This document shows, piece after piece, positions 5,811 to 46,023 of a stretch of 64,000 nucleotides of DNA. Below the pieces are notes generated by a model. The model was not told the DNA's origin and made no database searches. It saw only the letters and a list, made by a program, of their open reading frames with translations. How positions within the stretch are numbered: the first letter of the stretch is position 1; the number at the start of each line of letters is the position of its first letter. The stretch comes from Burkholderiales bacterium (lineage in GTDB: Bacteria; Pseudomonadota; Gammaproteobacteria; Burkholderiales; Burkholderiaceae_D). Both the position numbers and the translations under genes were made by a program. The DNA is taken from NCBI GenBank assembly GCA_016196925.1, contig JACPWS010000021.1, forward strand, positions 1 through 64,000, written 5' to 3'.

Positions 5811-6674
5811 ATGAATTTTCACGCCGCACTGCTACTCTTGGTCACCCTGGTCTGGGGCACGACTTTTCCGGTTTTAAAAAATGCCGCCCTGCATTTGTCG
5901 GGGCTGGAAGTCTCGGCCTTGCGCTTTCTGGTGGCGGCCGTCTGCATGGCGCCGTTTGCCTTCCGATGCAGCCGCGCCGCCTGGCGCGACGGCGCCTTGC
6001 TGGGCGCGGTGGCGTTGATTTCCTATGTCAGCCAGGCTTACGGCTTGCAATTTATTTCCTCGAATCGCAGCGCCTTCCTGACCAGCCTGAACGTCTTGCT
6101 GGTGCCCTTGCTCGCCTGGCTGCTGGGCGGCAAGCTGTCTTTGCAATTGCTGCTGGCGGCCGGGCTGGCCTGCGCCGGCATAGGCTTCATGTCGTGGGAG
6201 GGCGGCGCTAGCTGGAGCGGCGATAGCGCCACCCTGGTCTGCGCCCTGAGCTATGCGGCTTACGTGCTGATGCTGGCGCGCATGGTGCAGCGGCACACGG
6301 CGCGCACGCTGGCGGCGACCCAGATCGTCATGATGGCGCTGTTCGGCACGGTACTGCTGGCGCTGGAAGGCGGCGCGCAATTGGCGAGCTTGCCGGCCCG
6401 CTTGCAGCCGGCGCTGCCCGCCATCCTGTACCTGGGCGTGATCGCCACCGCCGCCATGCTGTTTTTGCAGGCGATAGGCCAGCAGCGCATCAGCGCGGCC
6501 AAGGCGGCGCTGATCTTCGCGCTGGAACCGGCCTTCGCCGCGCTGTTTGCCTGGATCTGGCTGGGCGAGCTGCTGAGCCAGCGCGCGGCCATGGGCGGGG
6601 CGCTGGTGGTGCTGGCGGTCGTGTTGTCTGAGTGGAAGTTTGCTTCGGCGACGCGCTTGAGCAGTGCCGAGTAA
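5811..6674 (+). CDS. EamA/DMT superfamily transporter
   Basis: The 287-residue protein has ten predicted membrane segments in two EamA repeats, beginning MNFHAALLLLVTLVWGTTFPVLK, with the hallmark WGTTFP motif in the first segment and the second repeat starting near residue 145. DMT exporters of this kind pump metabolites or amino acids out across the inner membrane; the substrate is unknown. A GATAAT hexamer at 5770-5775 may be the -10 element. No clear ribosome-binding site precedes ATG 5811, and the longer frame from 5688 adds non-conserved charged residues. Divergent from the SDR gene at 4985-5590. Confidence 0.88.
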   Translation: MNFHAALLLLVTLVWGTTFPVLKNAALHLSGLEVSALRFLVAAVCMAPFAFRCSRAAWRDGALLGAVALISYVSQAYGLQFISSNRSAFLTSLNVLLVPLLAWLLGGKLSLQLLLAAGLACAGIGFMSWEGGASWSGDSATLVCALSYAAYVLMLARMVQRHTARTLAATQIVMMALFGTVLLALEGGAQLASLPARLQPALPAILYLGVIATAAMLFLQAIGQQRISAAKAALIFALEPAFAALFAWIWLGELLSQRAAMGGALVVLAVVLSEWKFASATRLSSAE

Positions 6675-42247: not shown

Positions 42248-43461
42248 TGAAGCAGCTATTGCTCCCGTTCCAGCGCTGGTCGCCGTTTTCAGCGGCGCCC
42301 GCCACGCAATTGGTCAAGCGTTCGAGGATGATGGAGTACGATCAGCCGCTGGTGTGGGTCACGATGATACTGATGCTGTTCGGCATGGTGATGGTGTATT
42401 CCGCTTCCATCTCTCTGCCAGATTCTCCTAAATACGCCAACTACAAGAATGCGCATTTCCTGATCCGCCAGGCTATGTTCGTCAGCGTTTCCATCCTCGC
42501 TGCGATCTTCACCTTTCGCATCCCGCTGGCGGTCTGGCAAAAACTGGCGCCTTATCTGTTTGTCGGCACCCTGATTTTATTGATGGCGGTCTTGATTCCC
42601 GGCCTCGGTAAAGGCGTGAACGGCGCCAAGCGCTGGCTCTCGTTCAAGGTGTTCAATCTGCAACCGTCGGAATTGATGAAGTTATTCATGGTGCTGTATG
42701 CCGCCGATTACACCGTGCGCAAGCAGGAATACATGCATAAGCTGACCAAGGGTTTCGTTCCCATGTTGCTGGCGGTGGGCGTGGTCGGTCTATTGCTGCT
42801 GCTGGAGCCGGACATGGGCGCGTTCGGTGTGATCGTCTGCATCGCCATGGGCATCTTGTTTCTGGGTGGGATCAACGGCGTATGGTTCGGTGGCATCGCG
42901 GTGACACTGGTCGGTATCTTCAGTATGATTATCCTGTTCTCGCCGTGGCGGCGCGAGCGCATTTTTGCCTACCTGAACCCCTGGGAAGAGCAAAACGCGC
43001 TCGGCAAGGCTTACCAGCTGTCGCATTCGCTGATCGCATTCGGCCGCGGCGAACTATTCGGCGTCGGCCTCGGCGCCAGCGTAGAGAAATTGCATTACCT
43101 GCCGGAAGCGCATACCGATTTTCTGCTGGCCGTGATAGGCGAAGAATTGGGGTTTGCCGGCGTGCTGGTGGTGGTCTTGCTGTTTTACTGGATATTGAAG
43201 CGCGCGTTCGAAATCGGGCGTCAGGCGATTGCGCTGGAGCAGACCTTTGCCGGATTGACCGCCAAGGGCATAGGCATCTGGATAGGCGTGCAAGCCTTCA
43301 TCAATATGGGCGTCAATCTCGGCTTGCTGCCGACCAAGGGCTTGACTTTGCCGCTGATGAGTTACGGCGGCTCCGGGGTGATGATTAACTGTGTCGGCCT
43401 GGCCATCTTGCTGCGCGTCGATTATGAAAACCGGGTGCTGATGCGCGGAGGCCGCGTATGA
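42247..43461 (+). CDS. ftsW: septal peptidoglycan glycosyltransferase FtsW
   Basis: The 404-residue SEDS-family membrane protein polymerises septal glycan strands with FtsI. About ten membrane segments; conserved SEDS stretches [25 protein letters not shown] (with the catalytic Asp region), [17 protein letters not shown] and [13 protein letters not shown]. The start at ATG 42247 overlaps the murD stop. Confidence 0.96.
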
Positions 43462-44534
43462 CGCAGCAACGCCAGAAAAGATTGCTGATCATGGCGGCCG
43501 GCACCGGCGGCCATATTTTCCCGGGACTGGCGATTGCCGAGTTGCTGCGCGAACGCGGCTGGCAAGTCAGCTGGCTGGGAACCACGCACGGCATGGAAGG
43601 CCAGATCGTGCCGCGCCACGGCATCGCCATGGACAACATCGCATTTTCCGGTTTGCGCGGCAAGGGCTGGCGCCATACCGTCAGCGGCGCGTTTAAATTG
43701 CTGGCCAGCTTTTTTACTTGCGCCCGCATCATAGGCCAACGTCAACCGGACGCCGTGCTGGGGATGGGCGGTTACGTCACGGTGCCGGGCGGCCTGATGG
43801 CGGCCTTGCGCGGCAAACCGTTGGTATTGATGAACGCGGATGCTGCCTTATTGTTATCGAATAAAGTGCTGCGTCCGCTTGCCAGCCGGCTGCTGTTCGG
43901 CTTGCCGTCGGCCGTCGGCGACGCCAAGGCGCAAGTCACAGGCAACCCGGTGCGCAAGGAAATCTGCGAATTGGCAGTGCCGCAACAAAGATATGCGGAA
44001 CGCAGCGGCGCCTTACGCATCCTGGTAGTCGGCGGCAGCCTCGGCGCCAGGGCCTTGAACGATTGCCTGCCGGCGGCGCTGGCGCTGATTCCGGCCGACT
44101 TGAGGCCGGTGGTCACGCATCAATCCGGCAAGCAGCATATCGCCGCCTTGCGTCAGCGCTATGCCGAGTCCGGCGTGCAGGCCGAGGTGCTGGATTTTAT
44201 CGACGACATGCCGCGCCGTTATGCCGAGGCCGATCTGGTGATTTGCCGCGCCGGGGCGATTACGGTGTCGGAACTGACCGCCGCCGGCGTGGCCAGTATA
44301 CTGGTGCCTTTCATGGCTTCCAGCACGTCGCATCAGAAAGAAAATGCGCTCTGGATGGCTCAACAACAGGCGGCGCTGTATCTGCCGCAAGCCGACATGA
44401 CCCCGGCCGCACTCGCAAAACAATTGCAGGCGCTGGACCGGGCGCAATGTCTGGCGATGGCGCAGACAGCCTACGCGCTCGGCCGGCGCGAGGCGAGCGC
44501 CGCCATCGCAAAAATTTTGGAAGAATTGGCATGA
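43458..44534 (+). CDS. murG: UDP-GlcNAc:lipid I GlcNAc transferase MurG
   Basis: The 358-residue peripheral membrane glycosyltransferase makes lipid II from lipid I. Motifs: [17 protein letters not shown] (G-loop 1, residues 11-27), [20 protein letters not shown], and [11 protein letters not shown] in the UDP-GlcNAc site. It overlaps ftsW by four bases. Its stop overlaps, as ATGA, the start of a 37-codon ORF that mimics the murC start. Confidence 0.96.
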
Positions 44535-44644
44535 AGCATAAAGTTAAACACATACATTTCGTCGGCATAGGCGCTGAGCCGTGCGGTCGCACGGCGTTCC
44601 ATAATCATGGCGCTTGCCGCTCCGCCAGTGAGCAAACATCATGA
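44531..44644 (+). CDS. 37-residue ORF duplicating the MurC N-terminus
   Basis: The ORF starts in the murG stop (ATGA) and stops in the murC start (ATGA). Its first 14 residues, [14 protein letters not shown], equal those of MurC, but the DNA differs at seven bases, all third-codon positions and all silent. After that it departs ([20 protein letters not shown]). A GGAAG ribosome-binding site in the end of murG precedes it. A small hairpin, CCGTGCG/CGCACGG, lies at 44579-44594. It may be a coupling peptide, or a scar of a recombination event that duplicated the murC start; both are inference. Confidence 0.55.
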
Positions 44645-46023
44645 AGCATAAAGTCAAGCATATCCATTTCGTAGGAATTGGCGGAAGCGGCATGAGCGGC
44701 ATCGCCGAAGTCTTGCTGAATCTCGGCTATACCATTTCCGGTTCCGATCTCGCCAGCAATGCCGCTTCCCAGCGTCTGGCCGGCTTGGGCGCCAAAGTGG
44801 CGGTCGGGCATGCCGCAGAAAACATAGAGGACGCGGATGCGGTGGTGACGTCCACCGCAGTCAAACCGGATAATCCCGAAGTCGTCGCAGCACGCGCCAG
44901 ACACATCCCTATCGTGCCGCGTGCGCTGATGCTGGCGGAACTGATGCGCTTGAAGAGCGGGATCGCGATTGCCGGCACCCACGGCAAGACCACCACCACC
45001 AGCCTGGTCGCGAGCGTGCTGGCGCAGGGCGGCTTCGACCCCACCTTCGTGATCGGCGGCCGCCTGAACAGCGCCGGCGCCAACGCCAAGCTCGGCAGCG
45101 GCGACTTCATCGTGGCCGAAGCCGATGAATCGGATGCGTCTTTCCTGAATCTGCTGCCGGTGATCGAGGTGATCACCAATATCGACGCCGACCATATGGA
45201 AACCTATGGTCACGATTTTGCCAAACTGAAGCAAGCCTTTATCGAGTTCACCCAGCGCCTGCCGTTTTACGGCGTAGCCGTGCTGTGCCTGGACGATGTG
45301 CATGTGCGTGAAATTATGCCTTTCGTTTCCAAGCCTATCGTGACTTATGGTTTTCACGAAGACGCCGAAGTGCGCGCAGTGAACGCCTATGCTGCTGAAG
45401 GCAAGATGCATTTCACGGTGGTGCAGCAAGATTACCCCGACATGCAAGTCAGCCTGAATCAGCCCGGCATGCACAATGTGCAAAATGCCTGCGCCGCGAT
45501 CGCGATTGCGCGCGAAGTGGGCGTAGCGGATGAAGCTACCCAAAAAGCCCTGAGCGAATTCAACGGCGTCGGCCGCCGCTTCACGCGTTACGGCGAAATC
45601 GCGCTGGCCGCCGGCGGCAGCTTTGCGCTGGTCGATGATTACGGCCATCACCCGGTCGAAATGGCGGCGACGCTGGCCGCCGCGCGCGGCGCCTATCCGG
45701 GGCGGCGTCTGGTGCTGGCGTTCCAGCCGCATCGGTATACCCGCACCCGCGATCTGTTCGAAGATTTCGTCAAGGTCATGTCGTCGGCCGATGCGGTGGT
45801 GTTGGCGGAAGTGTATGCGGCCGGCGAGACTGCGATAGTCGCGGCCGATGGTCGTGCATTGACCCGCGCCCTGCGTGTGGGCGGCAAGGTGGAACCGGTA
45901 TTCGTGGAGGATATCCAGGAGATGCCGGAGAGTTTGCTGCATGTGTTAAAAGACGGCGACGTGCTGATCGTCATGGGCGCCGGTTCCATCAGCGCGGTGC
46001 CGGCAAAACTGGCGCAGGCATAG
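44641..46023 (+). CDS. murC: UDP-N-acetylmuramate--L-alanine ligase
   Basis: The 460-residue ligase adds L-alanine to UDP-MurNAc, the first step of the peptide stem. The dinucleotide-like start is [18 protein letters not shown], the P-loop [11 protein letters not shown] (about residue 110), and DDYGHHPVE is the later family motif. The start follows the 37-codon ORF; the ribosome-binding site directly before it (GTGAG) is weak, so translation may depend on coupling. Confidence 0.96.

What the first reader, a model, noticed from the sequence alone, without database searches (positions are those of the whole stretch)
44531..44644. A 37-codon ORF between murG and murC copies the MurC N-terminus with only silent differences
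The frame fits exactly, with ATGA overlaps to murG and to murC. Codons 1-14 give the same peptide as MurC, yet seven of 42 bases differ and all seven are third positions. A fresh tandem duplication would be identical; random decay would alter residues. So either the peptide was kept by selection, or the second murC start came from a diverged relative by recombination, leaving the old start as a leader. The ribosome-binding site stands before the small ORF, not before murC, so MurC output may depend on coupling through it.
Basis: partly seen in the sequence, partly recalled or inferred. Interest (0 to 1): 0.72.

Follow-up and report, generated by a model that had tools for sequence, protein, structure and literature searches.

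The report
Duplicated murC start with hairpin leader
Just before an essential cell-wall gene, this bacterium carries a spare copy of that gene's own first codons joined to an RNA-type hairpin; the same unit turns up, sometimes twice in a row, in scattered relatives, so it looks like a real inherited structure and not a sequencing error.

Summary
Confirmed, and larger than reported. The small ORF (44531-44644) belongs to a 110-bp unit at the murG/murC junction: a copy of murC codons 1-14, a strong hairpin (44578-44595), a weaker second hairpin and a short tail, then the real murC start. The unit lies at the same junction in 19 of 392 Oxalobacteraceae genomes; 18 were read in full, giving 20 units. 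Two carriers have complete tandem pairs; a third has at least two units. Hairpin 1 pairs in 140 of 140 cells, with compensatory changes. The leader ORF is open in 20 of 20 units and stops at the next murC start in 19 of 20. Insert divergence tracks host murC divergence (Mantel rho 0.72-0.85): old, mostly vertical, often absent. The leader copy's MurC-like peptide is constrained (19 silent: 6 non-silent), unlike the rest of the leader (7:31). Best reading: a translationally coupled leader unit that relays ribosomes from murG to murC and may be lost by recombination between start copies. Its effect on MurC is inferred. The hairpin's origin and the reason for the peptide constraint are open.

The parts
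43458..44534 (+). murG; its stop TGA overlaps the ATG of the small ORF (ATGA)
44531..44644 (+). 37-codon leader ORF; its stop TGA overlaps the murC ATG (ATGA)
   Evidence: leader frame open in 20 of 20 homologous units
44531..44572 (+). start copy A: murC codons 1-14, same peptide as MurC, 7 third-position differences
44578..44595 (+). hairpin 1: 7-bp stem, 4-nt loop (GGTC)
   Evidence: 140 of 140 cells paired and 4 of 7 pairs changed on both sides over 20 units; one exact site in the own genome
44609..44623 (+). weaker hairpin 2 (4 predicted pairs, 3 of them formed here), 7-nt loop
   Evidence: RNAalifold on 9 units
44624..44640 (+). tail before the murC start, weak Shine-Dalgarno potential
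44641..44682 (+). start copy B: true murC codons 1-14
44641..46023 (+). murC, 460 codons, open throughout; the junction DNA matches once in the genome

Best explanation
The small ORF is the front part of an old, heritable unit of 103-125 bp: a copy of murC's own first 12-15 codons, a hairpin module and a short tail, placed before the real murC start. Inferred mechanism: ribosomes ending murG start at copy A, translate through the hairpins, stop at the next start codon and restart there to make MurC. The unit would act as a translationally coupled relay that keeps the murG-murC chain intact and probably tunes MurC output. Because both ends carry the same start sequence, recombination between copies could duplicate the unit or remove it and leave an intact murC, which would explain arrays and patchy absence. 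Shown: structure, recurrence, hairpin covariation, frame and stop position, co-divergence with the host. Inferred: coupling in vivo, effect on MurC, the loss mechanism. Not explained: where the hairpin module came from, and why the leader copy's peptide is conserved.
For: Same unit at the same junction in 19 of 392 family genomes (first seen); 20 units read in 18 genomes. Hairpin 1: 140 of 140 cells paired, 4 of 7 pairs changed on both sides, partner slides give 0 or 1. Leader frame open in 20 of 20 units, the other forward frames in 16 and 8 of 20. Stop within -5 to +4 nt of the next ATG in 19 of 20 units; 6 of 7 length classes tested, chance 3.5e-4. Mantel rho 0.72 (18 genomes), 0.85 (9) and 0.83 (6), permutation p 0.0005-0.005. 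Copy A 19 silent: 6 non-silent in six within-genus pairs; rest of leader 7: 31; Fisher p 7e-6. Two complete units in G061 and in G159, at least two in G046. A decayed unit (G191, L193) still keeps an open ORF that ends 1 nt before murC's ATG.
Against: No expression data. Most family genomes searched show no unit, so any function is dispensable; on a murC tree of 68 rows presence is not clustered beyond shuffled labels (15 changes, shuffled mean 16.2). Single inserts do not fold better than shuffles (z -0.94 to +0.44, 7 tested). Copy A differs in residues from the following start in 6 of 20 units. In L161 the leader starts with GTG and overruns the murC start by 11 nt. Predicted openness of the murC start is unchanged in 11 of 18 genomes, and shifts by -0.06 to +0.09 in 7, when the leader is masked as translated, so the hairpins do not obviously hide that start. 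In Herbaspirillum the copy B sequence does not look local.
Confidence: 0.5

Rival explanations
1. A site-specific selfish insertion: a hairpin element of about 110 bp that enters murC at codons 12-15 and carries its own replacement start, so the essential gene survives.
For: In Herbaspirillum copy A matches local unit-less starts, copy B does not until about nt 33-44, and both joints lie near the same GGC-rich stretch. Patchy presence. Structured hairpin with covariation.
Against: Insert divergence follows host divergence. No convincing copy away from murC in 392 family genomes or a 399-genome order sample (8 weak hits inspected; only 12-14 candidates per genome are scored). No phage or plasmid copy found. 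Y1 transposase (PF01797) shows no link: no match in 5 of 18 carriers, and a match in 18 of 18 non-carriers.
Confidence: 0.2
2. A neutral scar: an old tandem accident, tolerated because the frame stays coupled, now drifting and being lost.
For: Most family genomes searched lack it; decayed and partly fused forms exist (L193; L164). The leader peptide beyond copy A is not conserved.
Against: Hairpin 1 is kept by paired changes over 20 units; copy A is constrained. The insert shows no consistent similarity to murC or the murG tail.
Confidence: 0.15
3. A recent event in this genome only: recombination with a diverged relative brought a second murC start and left the old one as a leader.
For: Seven silent differences between copies; copy A here is like genus starts, e.g. 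L015.
Against: The whole unit with its hairpins occurs in five other genus groups. Among the 18 carriers, the nearest insert and the nearest murC to this genome's are those of the same genome, L115 (0.19 and 0.20).
Confidence: 0.08
4. Ribosomes that start at copy A sometimes skip the hairpin and resume at the matching Gly codon of copy B, so copy A also supplies the N-terminus of MurC.
For: Copy A's peptide is constrained about as much as MurC's own start (19:6 against 13:3), and copy A ends at a GGC or GGT glycine codon (by eye). T4 gene 60 is a precedent (PMC5009743, passages read).
Against: murC keeps its own ATG after every unit read; a glycine boundary is unremarkable in a GIGG motif; no stop codon follows the presumed take-off site.
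Confidence: 0.04
5. Assembly artefact in a draft genome.
For: The window's genome is a draft of 107 contigs and reads cannot be checked.
Against: The same unit was read in 17 other assemblies, including contigs of 544 and 718 kb.
Confidence: 0.01

Closest known systems
Translationally coupled leader ORFs (for example the leader ORF of erm genes)
   Same: A short ORF upstream of a gene with mRNA hairpins. The erm example was seen only as the start of an abstract in a search listing (PMC5118997).
   Different: Here the leader is a copy of the served gene's own first codons, sits inside an operon, and occurs as a unit that can be tandemly repeated. No ligand and no stalling are known.
Integrative elements that enter the 5' end of a gene (SXT in prfC)
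   Same: An insertion at a gene's 5' end; SXT in the 5' end of prfC was read as passages of PMC10866021. That such elements supply a replacement 5' end is recalled.
   Different: SXT is described there as 100 kb with its own tyrosine recombinase; the unit here is about 110 bp, encodes no recombinase and follows host descent.
T4 gene 60 bypass and block inserts of Magnusiomyces mitochondria
   Same: A short insert in a coding region; for gene 60 a hairpin takes part (PMC5009743, passages read).
   Different: In gene 60 the ribosome must skip the gap to finish one protein; here murC has its own start after the insert.
REP elements moved by Y1 transposases
   Same: Short hairpin DNA (family features recalled).
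   Different: Seen only at one site in one family; no link with PF01797.

Membership tests
Translationally coupled leader ORF | Open frame whose stop lies at the start of the downstream gene | tested here: met
   20 of 20 open; 19 of 20 stops within -5 to +4 nt; chance over seven length classes 3.5e-4
Translationally coupled leader ORF | Downstream translation depends on leader translation | not testable with these tools
   Needs reporter fusions or ribosome profiling
Structured cis-acting RNA | Compensatory base changes in a conserved stem | tested here: met
   Hairpin 1: 4 of 7 pairs changed on both sides, 140 of 140 cells paired; single-sequence folding is not better than shuffles
Known Rfam family | Match at the gathering score | tested here: not met
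   No match at E up to 1 in window 44300-44900; in four other carriers one sub-threshold hit, 22.2 of 70 bits, in L156
5'-end integrative element (SXT-like) | Recombinase gene within the element | tested here: not met
   Units are 103-125 bp, too short for one
5'-end integrative element (SXT-like) | Movement independent of host descent | tested here: inconclusive
   Mantel rho 0.72-0.85 argues for descent; the Herbaspirillum copy B pattern leaves occasional transfer open
REP element / Y1 transposase | Copies scattered over the genome | tested here: not met
   One exact hairpin site in the own genome; no convincing copy away from murC in the family search
[quoted passage not shown]
   Glycine GGC or GGT at the boundary, by eye, but the motif is Gly-rich

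The most novel reading that the evidence does not exclude
An essential gene carries an expandable start cassette: a reusable unit of start codon, N-terminal codons and structured RNA that can multiply or vanish by recombination and always leaves an intact gene. Unit number would set MurC output, and the leader copy's peptide is kept because it is still used, either as MurC's N-terminus (after unit loss or ribosome bypass) or as a regulatory peptide.
Probability: 0.15. Interest if true: 0.85.

Novelty: new variant of a known kind. Interest (0 to 1): 0.6.

Why it matters
It is a recurrent, structured unit inside the core cell-division and cell-wall cluster, made from the served gene's own start. 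It offers a natural test case for how bacteria keep translation coupled across an insertion in an essential gene, and for how tandem start units appear and vanish. It also shows that a short, silently diverged ORF, easily passed over in annotation, can be an old inherited feature.

Tried and rejected
Hairpin as a genome repeat: one exact site in the own genome, two further places with 2 mismatches. Insert as a decayed murC or murG duplicate: local alignments against shuffles gave p 0.008-0.96 for the peptide (18 genomes), 0.017-0.91 for DNA against murC (18) and 0.02-0.85 against the murG tail (17), low in only one or two each. Phage or plasmid source: weak short matches and ordinary murC genes only; a hairpin pattern gave 0 matches in viral contigs. 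Low-scoring model hits elsewhere: 8 inspected (L162, L163, L165, L169, L170, L173, L208, L209), none with a direct repeat around the hit; the other weak hits were not read one by one. Long murG-murC gaps in other relatives: 26 loci read, no unit seen. Y1 transposase association: none. Literature: six answered searches; the two aimed at the subject listed nothing that describes this unit in the 15 and 10 rows shown; the library lacks most subscription papers.

Rows dropped before counts: G334 (L122, L153) was found by the model but its contig breaks inside the hairpin, so it is in the 19 and not in the 18. Only the last unit of each genome entered the distance tests, and one search used the first 62 columns of the insert alignment. 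The stop-position test used one genome for each of seven length classes; the 125-nt unit was not tested separately. The six within-genus pairs were chosen by me as roughly independent and their counts were copied in; in its leader comparison one of the seven rows compared a unit with itself and adds nothing, and units of L160 enter three of the other six.

Full report
Observation. The ORF at 44531-44644 is real. It has ATGA overlaps with murG and murC, and its first 14 codons encode the same peptide as MurC with 7 third-position differences. The junction matches once in the genome, a draft of 3.5 Mb in 107 contigs. MurC's best named hit is Undibacterium aquatile (92% in the best segment).

Recurrence. 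In the genus (43 genomes searched), 29 other murG-murC junctions were read; none has the unit, 18 have the direct overlap and 11 have gaps of 9-64 nt. A family-wide DNA search with the junction (392 genomes) gave matches across the whole insert in other genera. A covariance model of the insert found it at murC in 19 of 392 genomes (84 of 392 have some match at E 0.1 or better; six of the weak ones were read and show no repeat). 18 of the 19 were read in full: 20 units, lengths 110 (9 units), 122 (5), and 103, 104, 106, 112, 113 and 125 (one each). Two carriers are MAGs whose titles say Herminiimonas (L048, L054); tree neighbours suggest Herbaspirillum, Herminiimonas and Noviherbaspirillum relatives, a relative of the Massilia group and an unnamed genus near Oxalobacter. 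In a 399-genome order sample, which includes some of the family, only the own genome and G046 gave strong matches; two weak hits in another family show no repeat. So outside the family it was not seen in that sample.

Anatomy. Each unit has a copy of murC codons 1-12 to 1-15, then hairpin 1, a linker, a weaker hairpin 2 and a tail. In hairpin 1, 140 of 140 cells pair over 20 units and 4 of 7 pairs have changes on both sides; partner slides give at most 1 such pair. Hairpin 2 is less sure. Single inserts fold no better than shuffles (7 tested), so the case for structure rests on covariation. Rfam gave no match in the window stretch at E up to 1 and none at threshold in four other carriers.

Translation signals. 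The leader frame is open in 20 of 20 units; the other forward frames in 16 and 8. Its stop ends within -5 to +4 nt of the next ATG in 19 of 20. With shuffled inserts and jittered length the chance of that is 10-23% per genome; at least 6 of 7 length classes gives 3.5e-4. A decayed unit in G191 keeps this too. Shine-Dalgarno strength varies between carriers and is not biased to the first start. Masking the leader as translated leaves the predicted openness of the murC start unchanged in 11 of 18 genomes and shifts it by -0.06 to +0.09 in the others.

Evolution. Insert divergence follows host murC divergence: Mantel rho 0.72 for 18 genomes, 0.85 for the 9 of one genus, 0.83 for 6 of Herbaspirillum and Herminiimonas. 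This favours old, mostly vertical inheritance with many losses; the murC tree of 68 rows needs 15 changes, 12 forced by well supported branches, and presence is no more clustered than shuffled labels. Against a purely vertical story, in Herbaspirillum copy B is identical in four carriers over codons 2-12 while copy A follows local starts, and B is unlike local unit-less starts until about nt 33-44; the L116-L119 pair also has an insert distance twice its murC distance (0.30 and 0.15). Two complete units stand in tandem in G061 and in G159. G046 has at least two, since its murG contig and its murC contig both carry unit sequence with different lead-ins. G279's murC start holds six extra in-frame codons that look like a collapsed second unit (L164).

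Selection. Between copy A and the following start there are 72 silent and 12 non-silent differences over 20 units (summed). In six within-genus pairs copy A shows 19 silent and 6 non-silent changes, close to murC's own start (13 and 3), while the rest of the leader shows 7 and 31 (Fisher p 7e-6). About 18% of possible changes in these codons are silent. So the MurC-like peptide is constrained and the rest of the leader peptide is not. Exchange between unit-bearing and unit-less alleles in populations could produce this without any role for the peptide; one genome per species cannot test it.

Conclusion. The evidence supports a genuine inherited leader unit, translationally coupled by its layout, with a conserved hairpin. 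Its effect on MurC is inferred. A selfish insertion that brings its own start is the main rival.

Noticed in passing
L164 (G279), murC start: murC begins with six extra in-frame codons (QVHFVG after codon 12) that look like a collapsed second unit; if that is the true start, MurC there tolerates a longer N-terminus.
   Followed up: partly
L193 (G191), positions 1395-1500: A decayed unit: leader peptide largely changed and hairpin 1 not found by the model, yet the ORF is open and stops 1 nt before murC.
   Followed up: partly
L204 and L126 (G046): The assembly breaks at the repeat, which points to an array of at least two nearly identical units of unknown number.
   Followed up: partly
L122/L153 (G334): A contig breaks inside the hairpin and continues into what looks like another murC sequence; probable chimera or mixed assembly.
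   Followed up: no
L094 and L103, upstream of murC at position 6001: Long murG-murC gaps (123 and 109 nt) in a Gallionella and a Nitrosomonadales MAG hold other sequence that by eye contains inverted repeats.
   Followed up: no
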